From positions 1 through 43,392 of the forward strand of contig NZ_JAFIRA010000034.1 of NCBI RefSeq assembly GCF_022848905.1: DNA of 43,392 bases, given 5' to 3'. Positions 501-36,925 of the stretch are shown one piece after another. Position numbers and translations under genes: made by a program. Origin of the DNA: Thermostichus vulcanus str. 'Rupite' (lineage in GTDB: Bacteria; Cyanobacteriota; Cyanobacteriia; Thermostichales; Thermostichaceae). Under the pieces are notes generated by a model. The model made no database searches. It had not been told where the DNA came from and saw only the letters and a program-made list of their open reading frames with translations. Position 1 is the first letter of the stretch; the number at the start of each line of letters is the position of its first letter.

Positions 501-1847
501 ATGAGCATGCATCAAACCCCTGTAGAAAGGCCCTCTACGCAAGCCAAGGTCAAGTCCTTCCTACTGCCTGCCCTGTTGCTGGGGTTGTCTTTATTGGGAG
601 AAGTCCAACCTGCTGCCAGCCAAGAGGTGACCGAGCTGACGTTTTACTATCCGGTGCTGGTGCCGGGGCCGATTACGGAGCTGTTTGACCAACTGGTGAG
701 CGACTTTACCGCCAAAAACCCCGATGTTCGAATCACACCCGTCTATTCTGGAAGTTACGACGAAACCACCAATCGCATTCAAACGCAGCTACGGGCTGGC
801 GGAGAGCTGCCCGATCTGGCAATTATCGGCAACCAGCACACGGTGATGTACGTGGATTTGGATGCCATTGTGCCGTTGGATGAGCGAATCCAAGCGGAGG
901 GATCCGACTTCGAAGCCGATCTCGTGCCCGCCTTCATGCTCAACACCCGCTTCCGGGGCCAAACCTGGAGCATTCCCTTTCAACGCAGTACGCCGGTGAT
1001 GTACTACAACAAGGATATGTTCCGGGCAGCAGGGCTGGATCCGGAGTCGCCCCCCACCAACTGGGCAGAAGTGATTGAGTATGCTCAAAAACTGACCCAA
1101 CGGGATAGCAGTGGCAATGTCACCACCTGGGGGATCCAGATCCCTTCTGATATCGATGCTTGGGTGATCCAAGCGATGGCGGTGGGCAATGGGCAGCCTT
1201 GGGTGAACGAGACGGATGCCAACCGAGTCTTTTTCGACCATCCCGCCACCATTGGTGTGCTGCAACACCTGCGTGCCTTGGCGGAAGATTATCAGGTGAT
1301 GCCGGGTGGGTTGATCCCATGGGCCCAAATTCCTGCCGAGTTCACCAGTGGCAAAGCCGCCATGGTTTATCACACCATCGGCAGCCAAACCAGCATCCTC
1401 AAGCAAACCGAAGGGAAATTTGAAGTAGGGGTGGCCTTTATCCCCGGCGGCCAAAAGTACGGGGTGATCACCGGCGGCGGCAACCTCGCCATTTTCAAAC
1501 AAAGCAGCCCGGAAGAACAGAATGCCTCTTGGCGCTTTATTCGCTTCTTGCTGGAGCCAGAACAAATGGCCACCTGGTCTGCGGGCACAGGCTACTTGCC
1601 CGTTACCCGATCAGCCTATGAGCATCCGATCTTCCAAGAGTATCTGCAACGGGCACCGGGGGCGGCGGTAGCCTTTGAACAGTTGAACGTAGCTGCCAAA
1701 CAAATGGCTGTACACGAGTTGCTACGGGTTACCGACGTGGTGAAAGCCGGGATCCAAGCCAGCATTACGGGAGAAAGCACCCCTGAACAAGCCATGCAGA
1801 GGGCCCAAGCAGAAGCCGATGCCATTCTCAGTCGTTACCGGGACTGA
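501..1847 (+). CDS. ABC sugar-type transporter, extracellular solute-binding protein (family 1, UgpB-like)
   Basis: Periplasmic binding protein that captures the substrate for the permease pair encoded directly downstream. From the ATG at 501 the protein has 448 residues. It starts with a basic stretch, a hydrophobic core (FLLPALLLGLSLLG) and an AASQ cleavage site, so a Sec signal peptide is clear. The mature part has the family-1 pattern: an early FYYPVLVPGP segment, GELPDLAIIGNQ, a hinge IPFQRSTPVMYYNKDMF, and the late GGNLAIFK. A GTG at 456 would add 15 residues in front of the signal peptide; GAGAGGA at 486-492 favours 501. The fold resembles sn-glycerol-3-phosphate and oligosaccharide binding proteins. 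The actual substrate cannot be read from sequence. Confidence 0.88.
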   Translation: MSMHQTPVERPSTQAKVKSFLLPALLLGLSLLGEVQPAASQEVTELTFYYPVLVPGPITELFDQLVSDFTAKNPDVRITPVYSGSYDETTNRIQTQLRAGGELPDLAIIGNQHTVMYVDLDAIVPLDERIQAEGSDFEADLVPAFMLNTRFRGQTWSIPFQRSTPVMYYNKDMFRAAGLDPESPPTNWAEVIEYAQKLTQRDSSGNVTTWGIQIPSDIDAWVIQAMAVGNGQPWVNETDANRVFFDHPATIGVLQHLRALAEDYQVMPGGLIPWAQIPAEFTSGKAAMVYHTIGSQTSILKQTEGKFEVGVAFIPGGQKYGVITGGGNLAIFKQSSPEEQNASWRFIRFLLEPEQMATWSAGTGYLPVTRSAYEHPIFQEYLQRAPGAAVAFEQLNVAAKQMAVHELLRVTDVVKAGIQASITGESTPEQAMQRAQAEADAILSRYRD

Positions 1848-1850
1848 TCC

Positions 1851-2759
1851 ATGGGCCATCAGCCAAAACGGAGAGCCACTCGTACACAGCACTGGCTGGG
1901 ATTTCTGTTGGTCTTACCTACCCTGGTCGTGGTGGTTCTCTTCACCCTCCTCCCTTTGGGTTTGGCTCTGTACAGCAGCCTCACCATCGACAAGTGGACG
2001 GATCCCTTCGGGGAGAATGGCACCTTTGTGGGTTGGGAAAATTACCGCACCCTGTTTGCCGATCCGGTATTCCAAAAAGTGCTACAGAATACGGGCCTCT
2101 TCATTGGGGTAACGGTACCGATCAGCCTGGCTCTGGCCTTTGGGCTGGCCCTATTGCTCAATCAGCAGATGGCTGGCCTAGGGCTGCTACGGCTGGGCTT
2201 TTTCTACCCGACTGTACTGCCGATGGTGGGGGCGGGTACCATTTGGTTGTTCATCTACAATCGCAACTTTGGTCTGGCCAATGACTTGGTGAGTTGGCTA
2301 GGGCTACCCCGGCAAAATTGGTTGGGTACGCCCCAGTGGGCTTTGTGGGCCGTGATGGTGATGAGCATTTGGAAATCCACCAGCTACTATTTGATCTTTT
2401 TTTTGGCGGGGTTACAAAGCCTACCCACAGAGGTGATGGAAGCAGGCCAACTGGATGGGGCCAATCGTTGGCAACGGTTTTGCTACCTAACTCTGCCCTT
2501 GATGCGTAACACTATCTTTTTTGTCACAGTGATTGCTCTGGCAGCCGCCTTTCAAACCTACGATCAAATAGCGGTTCTAACCAAAGATGGCGGCCCCAAT
2601 CATGCCACCAATTTGCTGCTGTTCAACGTTCGTATTGCCTTCAGCAACGGGGATTACGATTTAGCCAATGCCCAAAGTATCCTGCTGGTGTTGATGGTCT
2701 TGTTTTTAACTTTACTGGCCTATGGACTGGCGGAAGCTGGACAAACAAAGGTGGACTGA
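1851..2759 (+). CDS. ABC sugar-type transporter permease 1 (UgpA/MalF-like)
   Basis: Inner-membrane permease of 302 residues, starting 3 bases after the binding-protein stop, so the two are translated together. It has about six hydrophobic helices and the cytoplasmic EAA loop (MEAGQLDGANRWQRFCYLTL), which docks on the ATPase. It pairs with the second permease two bases downstream. Family assignment is firm; substrate is unknown. Confidence 0.9.
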   Translation: MGHQPKRRATRTQHWLGFLLVLPTLVVVVLFTLLPLGLALYSSLTIDKWTDPFGENGTFVGWENYRTLFADPVFQKVLQNTGLFIGVTVPISLALAFGLALLLNQQMAGLGLLRLGFFYPTVLPMVGAGTIWLFIYNRNFGLANDLVSWLGLPRQNWLGTPQWALWAVMVMSIWKSTSYYLIFFLAGLQSLPTEVMEAGQLDGANRWQRFCYLTLPLMRNTIFFVTVIALAAAFQTYDQIAVLTKDGGPNHATNLLLFNVRIAFSNGDYDLANAQSILLVLMVLFLTLLAYGLAEAGQTKVD

Positions 2760-2761
2760 GA

Positions 2762-3607
2762 ATGCAAGGATACGAATTCAAGGGAGTTGAAATATCAATG
2801 CGTGGGATCCAAAACCGACTGGCAACACTGGCCACCTGGGGACTGATGGGGCTTTGGTTGGTACCTCTGGTCTGGGTGGTGGCCATTTCGTTGCGTCCAG
2901 AGGCGGTGCCTTTGGGGCGGGGATCCAGCCTGTATGCAGGGAGCTTCACCTGGCAAAATTATGAGCAGGCTTGGCGAACCATCGCCCCTAGCTATACCAA
3001 TACCGTAATCATCGTGTTTGGAACCCTAGCGGTGCAGTTGGTCACGATTACGTTGGCAGGGTATGCTTTTGCTCGACTACGGTTTTGGGGCCGCGAGGGT
3101 TGGTTTCTACTGAGCCTAGTTCAGATCATGATCCCGATTACGGCATTGATTATCCCAAATTTTTTTATCATTCGCTCCCTTGGTCTTTATGACACCGTTT
3201 GGGCAGTGATGGTACCTTATTTTGGCTCCGCCTTTGGTACCTTTTTGATGCGACAAACCTTTCGAAGCGTACCGATTGAGCTAGAAGAATCCGCCCGCAT
3301 AGATGGGGCTAACTTTCTACAGGTTTTACTCTATGTTTACCTGCCGATGGGGATCCCGGGTTTGGTGGCTTTTTCTTTGGCTTCAATCGTTTATCACTGG
3401 AACGACTTCTTGTTTCCTCTGTTGGTCACTGCTGACAAAGCTAGTCCCCTCAGTGTTCGTCTCTCCATTTTGGCTGCTACTGAAGGTGGGATCCAATGGC
3501 CACAATTGGCAGCAGCGACCGTTTGGGTAATTTTGCCCCTACTCTTGCTTTTCATGGTTTTACAGCGACAATTTGTACAGAGCTTTGCTCGCTCGGGCCT
3601 CAAATAG
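2762..3607 (+). CDS. ABC sugar-type transporter permease 2 (UgpE/MalG-like)
   Basis: Second permease subunit, 281 residues from the ATG at 2762. An ATG at 2798 (protein starting MRGIQNRL) is also possible, with AGGGAG at 2781-2786 in front of it. There are about six membrane helices and the EAA loop EESARIDGANFLQVLLYVYL at about residues 178-197. It completes the membrane channel of this importer. No ATPase gene follows, so a shared MsmK/UgpC-type ATPase from elsewhere in the genome is probably used. Confidence 0.9.
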   Translation: MQGYEFKGVEISMRGIQNRLATLATWGLMGLWLVPLVWVVAISLRPEAVPLGRGSSLYAGSFTWQNYEQAWRTIAPSYTNTVIIVFGTLAVQLVTITLAGYAFARLRFWGREGWFLLSLVQIMIPITALIIPNFFIIRSLGLYDTVWAVMVPYFGSAFGTFLMRQTFRSVPIELEESARIDGANFLQVLLYVYLPMGIPGLVAFSLASIVYHWNDFLFPLLVTADKASPLSVRLSILAATEGGIQWPQLAAATVWVILPLLLLFMVLQRQFVQSFARSGLK

Positions 3608-3664
3608 CCATAAAAAACTTCTGGTTTTAATTTTCCTTTAATTCTGTTTTAACCCCACTGATCA

Positions 3665-4447
3665 ATGCTAGCCAAACTCTCTGCCGCTGAACGTCAGCAA
3701 TATATCCTTGATCAGATCCAAAAAAAAGGATCCATCAGTGTTTCTGATACTGCTATTACTCTTAAAGTTTCAGAGATGACCGTGCGACGGGATTTGATGG
3801 AGTTGGAAAAACGGGGCTTACTGCAACGGCGACATGGAGGGGCAACTCTTCTGACCGCCCAACTTCTAGACGACCTCTACTCCTGGGAAACTCGGGTTCG
3901 CCACAATGTGGAGGCAAAGGTAGCCATTGCCAAGGTGGCGCTGGGATTGATTTCCGAGGGGGACAAATTAATTTTGCACAGTGGTACAACAGTTGCTTTG
4001 CTGGCGCGAATGTTGCGCAGTTATGGCAGCCTGACCATCGCCACCAACAGCATCTTGAGCATGGAAGAATTGCTCGGCTCTCCCCAGGTAGAAGTAATCT
4101 TAACTGGAGGGATCCTCAATCCTGACTTAAAACAATTGGCAGGCCCTTTGGCCTTACAATCCCTCAACTCGATTCGAGCTGATAAGGTCTTTTTAAGCTG
4201 TAGCAGTATTTCCACCCAGGATGGGCTATTTTTTACCAGCGCCATGGATGAAGTAGCCCTCGAACAAGCCTCCATCCGCAACTGTCGGGAGGCCTATTTG
4301 CTCGTGGATCACAGTAAGTTCCAACGTTCTGATTTTTGGGTGGTTGGGCAACTGACGCAACTTAAAGCCGTCATTACCGATGCCGGGATCCCTCCAGAAC
4401 GAGTCAAAGAGATGGAAGCTGCTGGGATCCCTTGTATTGTCGCTTAG
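3665..4447 (+). CDS. DeoR/GlpR-family transcriptional regulator
   Basis: Protein of 260 residues. The N-terminus is a DeoR winged helix-turn-helix: RQQYILDQIQKKGSISVSD, then EMTVRRDLMELEKRGLLQRR, the family signature, then HGGA. The rest is the DeoRC sensor domain, which normally binds a phosphorylated sugar. Signature pieces are ILHSGTTVALLA, TNSILSMEEL and the late LLVDHSKF. It lies 57 bases behind the sugar permease on the same strand, so it is probably the local repressor of this importer. Its stop overlaps the convergent alaC stop by four bases. Confidence 0.92.
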   Translation: MLAKLSAAERQQYILDQIQKKGSISVSDTAITLKVSEMTVRRDLMELEKRGLLQRRHGGATLLTAQLLDDLYSWETRVRHNVEAKVAIAKVALGLISEGDKLILHSGTTVALLARMLRSYGSLTIATNSILSMEELLGSPQVEVILTGGILNPDLKQLAGPLALQSLNSIRADKVFLSCSSISTQDGLFFTSAMDEVALEQASIRNCREAYLLVDHSKFQRSDFWVVGQLTQLKAVITDAGIPPERVKEMEAAGIPCIVA

Positions 4448-32678: not shown

Positions 32679-34769
32679 ATGCATCCCTCACAGGTCTTAC
32701 AAACAAGCCGCGAGCTGCTTTTTCAGCTGGGTAACGCTGTCAAGGGGATCCCCAACGAGTATCAAGACACGATTGGGGATCCACTCATCCTAGAGAAATT
32801 GGAAAAATTCCGCGTTGATTACGAGGAGGCCGTCGCTCGCCTAGAGAACCCTTCCTTCCGCATTGCCACCATCGGTACTACTTCGTCCGGCAAGTCCACC
32901 ATTGTCAATGCCCTGATCGGCAGGCAGATAGCCCCAATCGAAGCTCAAGAGATGAGTGCCGGGATCCTGCGCGTTAAGCACAGCGAGGAAACCAAGCTGG
33001 TGATCCACGAAACCGAGGGATCCACATGGGAAACCGGAATGTGGGAGGGTCTGAGTGACCAGGAGATATACAGCAAGGTAGAGCATGTCATGGGTGCTTA
33101 CCATCAAGAGCGCAAAAAGAAGAAAAATAATGTTGAAGCAATGGTGCCAGAAGTAGATGTTTATTGCCCGATTCTGCCAGTCAGGGATCCATCTTTGCTG
33201 AATTTGCCGAAGGAGGTGGGTGTCGAGATTTATGATTTGCCGGGATTAAAATCAATTCAGGACAGGAGTAACCTACGGGTTATCCAAGAGCAAGTAAGCA
33301 AATGTTTTAGTATTGTTTCTCTGGATTACACTCAAGTCGATGATCAGCATCGAGCTTCTCTGTTAAAAGAACTCAAAAATGTAGTGGAGTATTTAGGGGG
33401 CCGAACCGACCAAATCCTCTTTTTGCTCAACAGGGTGGACTTGCGAACTCAGCAGGATAAGCCTCTGGAGGAGCGTATCGAAGAATTGCAGCGCGAGATC
33501 CAAAATGTCCTAGAGCTTCCTGATCAGCCCCATGTTGTTCCGCTGAGCGCTCTGATGCTTTTCTACGCTCAGTGTGCATGGGGAGCCAATTCATTTCAAT
33601 CTTCAGATGTAGATCCCGGTGTCCGAAAACGGATGCTTGACTCTCTTTTTAAGGACTGTGCCAAGTTAATCAAAACTTCCACGAGTGGGGATAGAATCCT
33701 GAGAAGCTGGCTACATGATTTAGAGCAAGATATTGAGGAAGGCCTAGATATCAGTGATGAGGATGTCAAGAAAGTTCTAATGTATGCATTAGATTGGAGT
33801 GGCGGAGGAACACTATGGAATGCCTTACGAGAAAGGGTTAGATCTGCCTTCCCAGCAGCCGTAATAACACCGGCATTATTTCAAGTAGTCAACACAGCCA
33901 AAGATTTTGTTGCCTCGATGGATATTGTAATAGAAGCAAGACGGATTGAGACCATTGAAGAGGTGGACAGGCAGCAGCGCTATATTCAGCAAAGACAAGA
34001 GAGCTGTAAAGCAGAGGCAGAAAAGCTTGTTGCAAAATTTGTTGATGACATCTCAGATCTAGAAGAACAAATTTCCAAAAGTGATGGAAGTCCTGAGGAT
34101 AACTTAAAGATCGAAAAGAAGGCGAAAGAAAAAGGATGGACAGGGTTTCCAGCCTTCTCTGATTTCCTAGAGGATCGGGCAAAGGATCTTACACTGCAGG
34201 TCATTCTACCTATTCGTGGAGCACTCAGGGGAGAGATTGGGATTTACGAACTGGAAGATTCTCTCTCAAAGGTTGTACCTGGGCATTTGGCAAATCGTGT
34301 GGCTAGATGCTGCGATCTGGCCATCAGAGTTTTTAGTGATTTTGAGCGAGGCGCAGATAACTTTACAATCCGGATCGAGACTGAGGCGTCTGATGGCCAA
34401 AAGCACAAAAAAATAGAGAATGCTGAATTTGTAACTCGGGCCTTGTATCAATCAGTCAGGCAAGCGCTCACATGCAGGGCTGAATTTCTACTGCAAGCCA
34501 AGGCGAAAACCTTTGTGTCGTTTGGCAACTCCTTGATCTCACAGCTCGTTGAAGGCCTAATTAACATTTATAAAGACTCCCCAGATTCTTTATCTATTAG
34601 CCAAGCGATTGTTAATGACATTAAGGTTTACACTGAGAGCCACCCTTTGACTCTCCCAGAAGATGAGGTTTTTGTTTTCCCAGATCCTCTAACTGTGGAG
34701 GAAGAAACAGAACCCATAAAGACAAAAAAAAACCAAACGAAGATCCTGCTGGGGAGGGGTCGACTATAA
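32679..34769 (+). CDS. Dynamin-like large GTPase
   Basis: Protein of 696 residues. G1 is GTTSSGKST (66-74), the switch region holds EMSAG (91-95), G3 is DLPGLKSI (186-193) and G4 is NRVD (251-254). An N-terminal helix precedes the GTPase and a long helical stalk follows, with a coiled coil at about 425-490 (RQQRYIQQRQESCKAEAEKL). No membrane helix is obvious. This is a bacterial dynamin-like layout, families of which remodel membranes or act in phage defence. GGGAGG at 32665-32670 gives a good start. Near the 3' end lies a run of nine A's (34724-34732); one A fewer would fuse this frame to the coiled-coil reading that ends at 35100. First gene of the cluster 32679-36925; the role is inferred. 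Confidence 0.85.
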   Translation: MHPSQVLQTSRELLFQLGNAVKGIPNEYQDTIGDPLILEKLEKFRVDYEEAVARLENPSFRIATIGTTSSGKSTIVNALIGRQIAPIEAQEMSAGILRVKHSEETKLVIHETEGSTWETGMWEGLSDQEIYSKVEHVMGAYHQERKKKKNNVEAMVPEVDVYCPILPVRDPSLLNLPKEVGVEIYDLPGLKSIQDRSNLRVIQEQVSKCFSIVSLDYTQVDDQHRASLLKELKNVVEYLGGRTDQILFLLNRVDLRTQQDKPLEERIEELQREIQNVLELPDQPHVVPLSALMLFYAQCAWGANSFQSSDVDPGVRKRMLDSLFKDCAKLIKTSTSGDRILRSWLHDLEQDIEEGLDISDEDVKKVLMYALDWSGGGTLWNALRERVRSAFPAAVITPALFQVVNTAKDFVASMDIVIEARRIETIEEVDRQQRYIQQRQESCKAEAEKLVAKFVDDISDLEEQISKSDGSPEDNLKIEKKAKEKGWTGFPAFSDFLEDRAKDLTLQVILPIRGALRGEIGIYELEDSLSKVVPGHLANRVARCCDLAIRVFSDFERGADNFTIRIETEASDGQKHKKIENAEFVTRALYQSVRQALTCRAEFLLQAKAKTFVSFGNSLISQLVEGLINIYKDSPDSLSISQAIVNDIKVYTESHPLTLPEDEVFVFPDPLTVEEETEPIKTKKNQTKILLGRGRL

Positions 34770-34803
34770 GGAAGTTATTATCGGCACAAGAAACTATCAG
34801 CGA

Positions 34804-35100
34804 TTGAGTGTCCCAAGCTTCGATGTAATGGCTAGCCAGTGGTCGGAGGGGATAAATCTTGGCAAGAAGGAGTTGTGGAATGCTCTGAAGAAATGGCTGA
34901 TCGACTATGTTAGTAAAGCAAAGGAAGTTATCCAGGAATCCCATGAGAGAACCATTAACTTGGCTCTCAACGAGCTGGACAAACAAAGGCAAGAACTCAA
35001 TGCACAAACAGACATAAAAACGATTATCATCGATTCTCTAGAAGAAAGGAAGAAATGGATTGAGGAAGCGTTGGAATCATTATCTGCGGTAGGGAGATGA
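34804..35100 (+). CDS. Coiled-coil piece, probably the frameshifted C-terminus of the dynamin-like protein
   Basis: An in-frame start at TTG 34804 or ATG 34828 gives 98 or 90 residues of helix (LGKKELWNALKKWLIDYVSK, then IIDSLEERKKWIEEALESLS). Neither start has a convincing ribosome site. The frame is open back to a stop at 34714-34716 and in between reads plausible protein (GVDYKEVIIGTRNYQRLS). Dropping one A from the 9-A run at 34724-34732 would join it to the GTPase in front. It may therefore be a genuine tail made by slippage, a recent mutation, or a separate small gene. The next gene has a good ribosome site, so it is translated independently. Confidence 0.6.
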   Translation: MSVPSFDVMASQWSEGINLGKKELWNALKKWLIDYVSKAKEVIQESHERTINLALNELDKQRQELNAQTDIKTIIIDSLEERKKWIEEALESLSAVGR

Positions 35101-35104
35101 GAAA

Positions 35105-35701
35105 ATGCCAGGAGAGAATCAAGACCAAGTCATTAGGGTTGGGGGAGCTGCCGCTGCTGGTGGTTTGCTAGGTGCATTGATAGGGGGACCGATAGGTGCT
35201 GCTGCTGGTGCTGGGGTAGGAGTTTGGCTTGCTGAGCAGCTTGGCGAACTTCAGGGGGGGAACCAGGAAACTAGGTCAGCTCCTCAAAAAGGCTCTACGT
35301 TCTTAGTGCTAGCGTTCAGAACTTCCGAAATCGAAAGTATCAGCTCTATCCCAATAGGTAAACCATTAGATGAGGATTCTTGTAAGAAACTTTTCCAGTG
35401 CTCAAAATATATGTGGAAAGGATCAAGTCAGTCATTTAATACAAACAACTTTATGGATCTAATTAAGGGTAGGAACATCCAAAAAGCAGATCCAAGTGAT
35501 GAGTATGCTTTTCATCTGATAGCTCTTGAAGTAGACAAAGACATCTCTTCTAAGTTAGATAGAGGATTGGATAAAGGGGTAGATCTTCTAGATAAACTAG
35601 ATGCTTTCATGCAGCTAGCTGGTAGGGCGAGGATTGTAGGGGTCTCTCCCCCATTACTGCCTGCTTCTTTTGAGCATAAAGGTTTTTACAAGTTGGTTTA
35701 A
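35105..35701 (+). CDS. Glycine-zipper protein of unknown function
   Basis: A 198-residue protein from the ATG at 35105, with GGGAGATGAG upstream. Residues 13-50 are a Gly/Ala-rich membrane-insertable hairpin (GGAAAAGGLLGALIGGPIGA, then AAGAGVGVWLAEQLG), the glycine-zipper pattern seen in small membrane-active proteins. The rest is soluble-looking (SDEYAFHLIALEVDKDISSK, then LDRGLDKGVDLLDKLDAFM) and I do not recognise it. It starts 5 bases after the preceding reading, so it belongs to the same transcript as the GTPase. A role in anchoring or permeabilising membrane is inference. Confidence 0.75.
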   Translation: MPGENQDQVIRVGGAAAAGGLLGALIGGPIGAAAGAGVGVWLAEQLGELQGGNQETRSAPQKGSTFLVLAFRTSEIESISSIPIGKPLDEDSCKKLFQCSKYMWKGSSQSFNTNNFMDLIKGRNIQKADPSDEYAFHLIALEVDKDISSKLDRGLDKGVDLLDKLDAFMQLAGRARIVGVSPPLLPASFEHKGFYKLV

Positions 35702-35719
35702 GGTTTAGGAGCTTGTCTT

Positions 35720-36925
35720 GTGCTTATCCCTACTCTGCTCTCTGCTTCAGCTCCCATTGTCAAGGGACTTCTCGATGGATCCTTGGTTCGTTACGGTGGT
35801 GTGATTCGGGAAGCCAGCAGTGGACGTATTGTTAAACACTTAACTGAGTCACCTGGCCTGACAGAAGCGCTGATGCACAGCCCGGATACTCCTATTTTAG
35901 GTGGAGCAAATCCAATCATTAATGTCCTTGGGCGTCAGGTTAACCCGCAAATCCCTGGTCTTTTGTCCAGTTCTGCCATGGGTATGTCTCAGATTGCTGC
36001 TGGGGCCAGCGCTCTCAACCTAGGAGTTAGCATCATTGGCTTCACTTACATGCACTTCCGCATGAATCAGCTACAAAATGCTATTATCGATCTCAAAAAC
36101 ACTGTTGAAGCCGGGATCCGAGACATCGAATCTAGACTGGATACTCTCTCTGGTCAGTTGGCCTACTTGAAAGTTCTAGCGGAGCAAAGCCGAACCGAAA
36201 TTTTGGATGCCATCTCTGAACTCCATCGCGCCATCTTCATCCAAAACCTTGCCAAACTTCAGGCCGAGCTTGCCAGCCTAGCCCGCTTTCCTGATTCTTC
36301 TCCTCGGGATGCCCTCAAGGCTTTAACTGAAGCTCGCGTCTTTTTTGTCGATCAGGCTCATCAAATCCCTACCCAGCGGCAAGCCCGATACCTCCTTCTG
36401 GGTGATATTGCTCTCAAGGGTTGGGCCGTTTCTCTGGCTACCGAGTCGCAGCTGCTCATCAAACACGGTTTTGTCAAAGATTCCACTGCTATCCTTAATT
36501 CAGAAGTTCCCCGGTTTCGTCAACTGTCCCAAAAGTGGTGTGAGGCTCTTCTTCCAGACGATCGCCCCCGTCTCAAAACCGCCTACACTTACGATGCCCC
36601 CCGATTTGCTCCTTACATTTCTACTGAACGTATTCGGCGTATTGCCCGTCTTTCACCCGTCGATCAGTCTCTCACTCCTGAGCAACTTTACCGAAGAAAA
36701 AGTGATCTTGACGTCGAGTTTCAAATGTCCTATTTCCGCGACCTGGATAAATCCTGGTATCTGACTCAAGTCGGTATTGCGGAGTATCTGGATCAACTGA
36801 GTGAACTCACCGAGCGGCTAGAGAGTTTGCAAGCATTCGCCAAGCTTTGTGAAAGTCTTGATGAAAGGGATCCCTACCGGTTCTTGCCTGCAAGCTCAGA
36901 GGATAAGGGATTATACTTAATCTGA
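35720..36925 (+). CDS. Membrane/coiled-coil protein of unknown function, cluster partner
   Basis: A 401-residue protein from GTG 35720 (TAGGAG at about 35706). Residues 82-111 form a hydrophobic stretch (GMSQIAAGASALNLGVSIIG, then FTYMHF), followed directly by a coiled coil at about 114-175 (MNQLQNAIIDLKNTVEAGIR, then IESRLDTLSGQLAYLKVLAE). The C-terminal half is helical and soluble (ALKALTEARVFFVDQAHQIP). No enzyme motif is visible and I do not recognise the family. It follows the glycine-zipper gene by 18 bases. GGATCC motifs reappear within it, unlike the genes just before, so this gene may be older resident DNA. Confidence 0.75.
   Translation: MLIPTLLSASAPIVKGLLDGSLVRYGGVIREASSGRIVKHLTESPGLTEALMHSPDTPILGGANPIINVLGRQVNPQIPGLLSSSAMGMSQIAAGASALNLGVSIIGFTYMHFRMNQLQNAIIDLKNTVEAGIRDIESRLDTLSGQLAYLKVLAEQSRTEILDAISELHRAIFIQNLAKLQAELASLARFPDSSPRDALKALTEARVFFVDQAHQIPTQRQARYLLLGDIALKGWAVSLATESQLLIKHGFVKDSTAILNSEVPRFRQLSQKWCEALLPDDRPRLKTAYTYDAPRFAPYISTERIRRIARLSPVDQSLTPEQLYRRKSDLDVEFQMSYFRDLDKSWYLTQVGIAEYLDQLSELTERLESLQAFAKLCESLDERDPYRFLPASSEDKGLYLI

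What the first reader, a model, noticed from the sequence alone, without database searches (positions are those of the whole stretch)
32679..36925. Four-part dynamin-like GTPase cluster with a glycine-zipper protein: candidate undescribed membrane or defence system
Seen: on one strand with gaps of 0-35 bases lie a large GTPase with clear G1, G3 and G4 motifs, a coiled-coil piece, a protein with an N-terminal glycine-zipper hairpin, and a protein with a hydrophobic stretch followed by a coiled coil. None of the last three is known to me. Known: bacterial dynamin-like proteins often come in sets with membrane partners, and LeoA-type sets (Eleos) act against phage. Inference: the set may form a GTP-driven membrane-remodelling or membrane-disrupting machine, with the glycine-zipper protein as effector or anchor.
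Basis: partly seen in the sequence, partly recalled or inferred. Interest (0 to 1): 0.78.

Follow-up and report, generated by a model that had tools for sequence, protein, structure and literature searches.

The report
Dynamin GTPase with JukB-like membrane attacker

Summary
The cluster is real, but it is three genes, not four. ORF2 is the C-terminal end of the GTPase, moved out of frame at an A9 tract (34724-34732); relatives encode one ~800-840-aa protein. The order GTPase, small membrane protein, ORF4 recurs in 32 cyanobacterial genomes in many locations. In 291 genomes the middle gene never occurs without the other two. ORF4 was the unrecognised part. Its N-terminal half is homologous to JukB, the effector of the jumbo-phage-killer system (reported to form pores). 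In four genomes ORF4 carries a class 3 lipase, and in one of these the lipase replaces the JukB-like hydrophobic segment. The glycine zipper is only one of several interchangeable anchors on the middle protein; the conserved part is a ~135-aa alpha/beta domain with no recognised fold. One cassette lies inside a BREX operon between PglX and PglZ, and one beside Hma on a conjugative plasmid; most lie outside defence islands. Best reading: a GTPase-controlled, membrane-attacking anti-phage system, a new variant combining dynamin-type and Juk-type parts. It is neither Eleos (LeoA/LeoBC) nor canonical Juk (no JukA). The window copy is frame-shifted and may be inactive, or partly rescued by transcriptional slippage. 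No function was tested.

The parts
32679..34769 (+). Dynamin-like GTPase, N-terminal ~690 residues (GTPase domain plus most of the helical part); G1 32874-32897, G3 33234-33245, G4 33429-33440
   Evidence: Dynamin_N E 3.8e-15; 45% identity over 650 residues to the intact Nostoc plasmid homologue; motif positions
34724..34732 (+). A9 tract at which the GTPase reading frame is shifted by one base relative to G004 and L022
   Evidence: runs of nine As are a known transcriptional-slippage length in bacteria (PMC1088944)
34733..35100 (+).
35105..35701 (+). Middle protein: glycine-zipper membrane segment (about 35159-35239) plus conserved ~135-aa alpha/beta domain (35285-35698)
   Evidence: alignment A1; AlphaFold2 model pLDDT about 80-95 for residues 61-198; membrane segments compared
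35720..36925 (+). ORF4, JukB-superfamily protein: JukB-like N-terminal segment (about 35738-36073), then coiled coil and helical C-terminal part
   Evidence: JukB PDLC04114 E 7e-4 for the window protein, 1.1e-13 to 3e-11 for its orthologues; hhalign 97.5% probability to a bona fide JukB over 106 columns and 99.8% to the JukB-like family over 328 columns

Best explanation
This is a three-gene, horizontally moving anti-phage cassette that acts on membranes. Shown by sequence: a dynamin-superfamily GTPase, a small protein made of an interchangeable membrane anchor and a conserved C-terminal domain, and a JukB-superfamily protein (ORF4) always occur together in the same order in cyanobacteria; ORF4 sometimes carries a class 3 lipase; some cassettes sit inside or beside known defence systems. 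Inferred: the membrane-anchored middle protein recruits the GTPase to a membrane (the cell membrane, thylakoid or an infection-associated membrane). On sensing a phage-caused disturbance, GTP-driven assembly of the dynamin exposes or clusters ORF4, whose JukB-like segment permeabilises the membrane; in lipase versions the lipase hydrolyses it. The fast-evolving middle protein (dN about 0.36-0.6 against about 0.1-0.2 for the first third of the GTPase and about 0.2 for ORF4) is the likeliest sensing or specificity part. In the window's own genome the GTPase is frame-shifted at an A9 tract, so the copy is either decaying or makes some full-length GTPase by transcriptional slippage.
For: Co-occurrence and order: 12 complete triads in 291 cyanobacterial genomes, with no middle gene (E<1e-15) outside them (naive hypergeometric p about 1e-19), plus 20 more in two family samples. 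Effector: JukB homology; JukB is described as an effector recruited by JukA that forms tetrameric pores on the phage's early-infection vesicle, and Juk effectors also include phospholipases (review PMC13282480). Effector exchange: Lipase_3 fused to ORF4 in G098, G507, G491 and G354; in G098 the JukB-like hydrophobic segment is gone while the GLxxGSLxRYG motif and C-terminal part remain. Defence context: the cassette lies between PglX and PglZ/BrxL on one strand in G280, 13 bases from PglZ, and beside HmaC/HmaB on a conjugative Nostoc plasmid. Real JukAB and other JukB-like genes lie among restriction-modification and helicase genes. Accessory behaviour: about 4% of sampled genomes, different loci, in-place decay in relatives (G004, G001, G005).
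Against: Of about 28 loci whose flanks were scanned, only two have unmistakable defence neighbours, so most cassettes are not in islands. The JukB similarity of the window protein itself is weak and confined to the N-terminal part (E 7e-4). No JukA-like sensor was found; the middle protein is not related to JukA (1.4%). Methylococcaceae and Ruminiclostridium have the GTPase and middle gene without a detectable ORF4, so the membrane attacker is not universal. The sensing step, GTPase role and target membrane are inferred only. The window copy's GTPase is interrupted.
Confidence: 0.6

Rival explanations
1. An accessory membrane-remodelling or membrane-repair system (thylakoid or cell membrane) unrelated to phage, like the cellular cyanobacterial dynamin-like proteins such as SynDLP.
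For: Dynamins remodel membranes, and cyanobacteria have other cellular dynamin-like proteins (PMC5827413, PMC10104851 listed). Most cassettes are not next to known defence genes.
Against: Patchy presence (about 4% of genomes), presence on a conjugative plasmid and inside a BREX operon, JukB homology and lipase fusion, frequent decay. G015 carries a separate ~811-aa dynamin besides the cassette GTPase.
Confidence: 0.18
2. In this genome the cluster is a dead remnant: the GTPase frameshift inactivates the set, and the separate ORFs are by-products of decay.
For: Frameshift at A9; in-place decay in relatives: four in-frame stops in G004, a GTPase-ORF4 deletion remnant in G001, only an ORF4 tail in G005.
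Against: ORF3 and ORF4 are intact. The disruption lies exactly at an A9 tract, and A8-to-A9 frameshifts in other bacteria still yield full-length product by transcriptional slippage (PMC1088944). An assembly error in the homopolymer is not excluded. This rival concerns the window copy, not the family.
Confidence: 0.45
3. A toxin-antitoxin or addiction module that uses the JukB-like/lipase protein as toxin and the GTPase as regulator.
For: Plasmid carriage in Nostoc; a membrane-active protein encoded last in a tight cassette; the GTPase is interrupted in 8 of 32 loci, mostly with ORF3/ORF4 intact.
Against: ORF4 stays intact where the GTPase is broken, so the GTPase is not an essential antitoxin. 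An ~840-aa dynamin is far larger than known antitoxins.
Confidence: 0.12
4. Two separately encoded GTPase pieces that assemble as a split dynamin, like LeoC and LeoB.
For: LeoB/LeoC are a split dynamin conserved in several bacteria (PMC4159319). In the window the C-terminal piece is an open frame with a possible TTG start at 34804.
Against: The split is not conserved: the gene is continuous in most relatives. The break differs by locus (frameshift in the window, TAG at the conserved Trp in G217, TGA in the linker in G292, TAA in G383), as expected of decay.
Confidence: 0.05

Closest known systems
Juk (jumbo phage killer) system, effector JukB
   Same: ORF4 shares JukB's N-terminal segment (GLxxGxxxxYGGVIRxxxxGQIVxHL plus hydrophobic helix before a coiled coil); like Juk, the effector can instead be a lipase.
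   Different: No JukA; a dynamin-like GTPase and a membrane-anchored alpha/beta protein instead; ORF4 has a longer C-terminal part; the window ORF4 matches the JukB model only over residues 7-118.
Eleos (LeoA, LeoBC) dynamin-type defence
   Same: Dynamin-like GTPase in a short operon; PADLOC LeoA matches the P-loop region (E 1.4e-10).
   Different: The match covers only the GTPase motif region; far below the LeoA family cutoff (18.9 against 325); partners are not dynamins in cyanobacteria; no LeoBC.
Bacterial dynamin-like protein BDLP1 of Nostoc (PDB 2j68)
   Same: Closest solved structure by sequence, GTPase domain (E 3.6e-6, profile columns 10-253).
   Different: No detectable similarity beyond the GTPase domain; BDLP1 has its own hydrophobic paddle (PMC4159319), whereas the cassette GTPase shows no strongly hydrophobic segment.
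Genes embedded in BREX loci (BrxU, BxaP)
   Same: Accessory genes inserted inside BREX operons; BxaP protects independently of BREX (PMC8565348, PMC10799925). The cassette is embedded in the same manner in G280.
   Different: Unrelated proteins; only one such cassette seen.

Membership tests
Dynamin superfamily GTPases | Dynamin_N domain above the curated cutoff with G1, G3 and G4 motifs | tested here: met
   56.8 bits against a cutoff of 27; GTTSSGKS, DLPG, NRVD
Dynamin superfamily GTPases | C-terminal helical region in one chain with the GTPase domain | tested here: not met
   Met in relatives, but in the window copy it is out of frame after the A9 tract; this marks a broken copy, not a different family
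Eleos (LeoA/LeoBC) | GTPase passes the LeoA/HP0731 family cutoff | tested here: not met
   NF041922 18.9 bits against a cutoff of 325
Eleos (LeoA/LeoBC) | A second dynamin encoded as LeoB/LeoC in the same operon | tested here: not met
   ORF2 is the C-terminal end of ORF1; ORF3 and ORF4 are not GTPases
Juk system | JukB-like effector (homology to JukB) | tested here: met
   N-terminal homology only:
Juk system | Full-length match to the JukB model | tested here: not met
   Only residues 7-118 match; a bona fide JukB matches over its whole length at 4e-142
Juk system | JukA sensor in the same operon | tested here: not met
   No JukA hit among the four ORFs at E<=1; the middle protein is unrelated to JukA
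Juk system | Protection against nucleus-forming phages through attack on the early-infection vesicle | not testable with these tools
   Needs phage challenge
Class 3 lipase effectors | Lipase_3 domain with GHSLGG nucleophile elbow on ORF4 | tested here: not met
   Absent from the window ORF4; present in four homologues, best E 1.2e-31

The most novel reading that the evidence does not exclude
A previously undescribed anti-phage system in which a dynamin-like GTPase, anchored through a protein with a domain of no recognised fold, activates an exchangeable membrane-destroying module (JukB-type pore or class 3 lipase): a dynamin-gated membrane attack complex of bacteria. It would link dynamin-type and Juk-type immunity and might act on infection vesicles or on the host membrane.
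Probability: 0.45. Interest if true: 0.82.

Novelty: new variant of a known kind. Interest (0 to 1): 0.66.

Why it matters
Few bacterial dynamins have a known role in immunity, and how they act is open. A cassette that always couples a dynamin to a JukB-like pore module, and sometimes to a lipase, makes a specific hypothesis testable: that the GTPase gates membrane attack. It also extends JukB-type effectors to cyanobacteria, where few membrane-targeting phage defences are described (own knowledge), and it offers ready natural variants (pore only, lipase plus pore, lipase only) for comparing mechanisms.

Tried and rejected
Four independent genes: rejected. Glycine zipper as the conserved effector: rejected. 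Eleos/LeoA membership: rejected by cutoff. Middle protein as JukA: no relation. Phage-borne system: no relative of the GTPase in phage records or IMG/VR; a JukB-like fragment protein occurs in one viral contig. Middle-protein fold: Foldseek and VIA-align gave no convincing match (best Foldseek E 0.33-0.85, best Z 3.3), so the fold stays unassigned. ORF4 structure from a single sequence was poor (pLDDT 47) and was not used for fold searches; I should have spent that job on an alignment. Empty-site test: the two flanks of the cassette are not adjacent in the relatives, so no empty site could be shown. Programmed frameshifting as a family trait: rejected, because the A9 tract is not conserved and breaks differ between loci. 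dN/dS: dS is saturated, so only dN was compared. I first thought the GTPase was specially prone to disruption (8 of 32 against 3 of 32 for ORF4), but per kilobase the two genes do not differ clearly. Literature searches found no description of this cassette, but the library lacks most subscription papers and preprints; the only paper it returned for JukA/JukB is a review.
Full report
OBSERVATION. The window is a cyanobacterial contig (window = G000:C34, genome 3.72 Mb). The stretch 32679-36925 holds four same-strand ORFs with gaps of 34, 4 and 18 bases. ORF1 is a dynamin-superfamily GTPase (Dynamin_N E 3.8e-15, above the gathering score) with G1, G3 and G4 motifs. The stretch is GC-poor (46.6% against 53.8%; GC3 35-47% against 65% in neighbouring genes).

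ONE GENE, NOT TWO. A plasmid of Nostoc sp. TCL26-01 carries the same set as three genes: GTPase 837 aa, then 282 aa, then 429 aa. Window ORF1 matches residues 9-658 of that GTPase, and ORF2, in another frame, matches residues 735-798. The ORF2 frame is open upstream to a run of nine As at 34724-34732. It contains RRSCWGG, which corresponds to the conserved SCF motif inside the single reading frame of the relatives. So the GTPase gene is frame-shifted in this genome. Bacterial A9 runs are a recognised transcriptional-slippage length, and A8-to-A9 frameshifts that still give functional product are documented (PMC1088944). Whether that happens here is unknown, and an assembly error is not excluded.

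THE CASSETTE IS CONSERVED. In 291 cyanobacterial genomes I searched profiles of the GTPase, the middle gene and ORF4. Twelve genomes have all three, adjacent and in the same order. No genome has a middle gene at E<1e-15 without the other two. Three more have remnants: G001 (GTPase residues 1-360 joined to the C-terminal part of ORF4), G005 (ORF4 tail only) and G062 (GTPase plus a 60-residue piece of ORF4). The hypergeometric p of about 1e-19 ignores relatedness; adjacency in different surroundings is the stronger argument. Two further family samples (62 and 193 genomes) gave 24 new GTPase loci: 20 complete triads, three cut by contig ends, one degraded (G472). Total: 32 triads. Outside cyanobacteria the GTPase and middle gene occur in Ruminiclostridium and Methylococcaceae, the latter followed by a second dynamin-like GTPase instead of ORF4.

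ORF4 IS A JUKB-SUPERFAMILY PROTEIN. The window protein matches the PADLOC JukB model weakly (E 7e-4, residues 7-118). Its orthologues match at 1.1e-13 to 3e-11 over the same region. A bona fide JukA-JukB pair was found on a Pseudomonas luteola plasmid next to a type I restriction system (JukA 2.4e-28, JukB 4e-142). hhalign of the ORF4 family against this JukB gives 97.5% probability over 106 N-terminal columns, and against a JukB-like family alignment 99.8% over 328 columns. A 2026 review states that JukB is recruited by JukA to the early phage infection vesicle and forms tetrameric pores, and that Juk effectors also include phospholipases (PMC13282480).

EFFECTOR EXCHANGE. In four genomes ORF4 carries an N-terminal class 3 lipase with the GHSLGG motif (best Pfam E 1.2e-31). 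In G507, G491 and G354 the JukB-like hydrophobic segment is kept. In G098 it is deleted, while the short GLxxGSLxRYG motif and the helical C-terminal part remain. This series (pore-like only, lipase plus pore-like, lipase only) is what one expects if the hydrophobic segment and the lipase do the same job, membrane damage. That reading is inference.

THE MIDDLE PROTEIN. Its N-terminal membrane segment varies: glycine zipper in 5 of 17 homologues, single TM helix in 6, none in 6. Its C-terminal ~135 residues are conserved and predicted as a confident alpha/beta domain (pLDDT about 80-95, residues 61-198) with no convincing match among solved or viral structures. In G062, which lacks the middle gene, the GTPase itself has a glycine zipper (residues 670-710), which fits a role of the zipper as membrane anchor for the GTPase. 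The middle gene evolves fastest: dN 0.36-0.6 between close relatives, against 0.1-0.2 for the first third of the GTPase and about 0.2 for ORF4; the rest of the GTPase lies between, and dS is saturated.

CONTEXT. In G280 the cassette lies inside a BREX operon: PglX C-terminus (2.2e-108), 214-aa gene, GTPase, middle gene, ORF4, 13 bases, PglZ (E 0), BrxL (1.2e-230), all on one strand. Genes embedded in BREX loci are known (BrxU, PMC8565348), and BxaP protects independently of BREX (PMC10799925). On the Nostoc conjugative plasmid the cassette is followed by HmaC (1.8e-97) and HmaB. Of 99 flanking proteins from about 28 loci, few others hit PADLOC strongly, so most cassettes are not in recognisable defence islands. 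The cassette is patchy, sits at different loci, and is decaying in place in relatives of the window genome (G004 has four in-frame stops). I count the GTPase gene interrupted in 8 of 32 loci (G000, G004, G007, G217, G280, G292, G343, G383), partly in draft genomes.

MECHANISM. Shown: composition, order, homologies, fusions, contexts. Inferred: the middle protein anchors the GTPase at a membrane; phage-triggered GTPase assembly activates ORF4; ORF4 breaks the membrane by pore or lipase. The target (host membrane, causing abortive infection, or a phage vesicle) cannot be decided here.

COMPARISON. It is not Eleos: LeoA family 18.9 against a cutoff of 325 bits, and no LeoBC. It is not canonical Juk: no JukA, and only the N-terminal part of JukB. 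It works most like a Juk-type effector under a dynamin-type controller, hence a new variant of a known kind. I found no description of it in the papers available, but the library is incomplete.

Noticed in passing
L072 (G280 contig C214) 229-11228: The cassette is embedded in a BREX operon between PglX and PglZ/BrxL, with ORF4 ending 13 bases before PglZ.
   Followed up: yes
L087 (G062) 1178-3676: The cassette-type GTPase carries a glycine zipper in its own chain (residues 670-710); the middle gene is absent and only a 60-residue piece of ORF4 remains.
   Followed up: partly
L024, L026, L027 (Methylococcaceae): GTPase plus middle gene are followed by a second dynamin-like GTPase of 769-797 aa, with further GTPase genes beside them in L026; no JukB-like protein was seen.
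   Followed up: partly
L079, L083, L085, L088 and L084 (G001:C1:1809529-1809963): Solitary ~400-aa JukB-like proteins without JukA or a GTPase are widespread in cyanobacteria.
   Followed up: partly
L089 852-1439 (IMGVR_UViG_2923491830_000001): A 195-aa protein with the JukB-like N-terminal motif lies beside phage structural genes.
   Followed up: no
L137 5986-7155 (Ca. Chlorohelix plasmid): A JukB-like gene (7.6e-23) lies between a DruE-like helicase and another helicase plus an N-6 methylase, suggesting another association of this effector.
   Followed up: no
L074 (G217) and L029 (G004), GTPase C-terminal part: Both have a TAG at the same otherwise conserved tryptophan codon (MA[KR]QW); this may be coincidence.
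   Followed up: no
L071 8055-9197 and L142 4955-6097: A PDC-S11-like gene (about 1e-14) lies downstream of the cassette in two genomes of one family (G276, G306).
   Followed up: no
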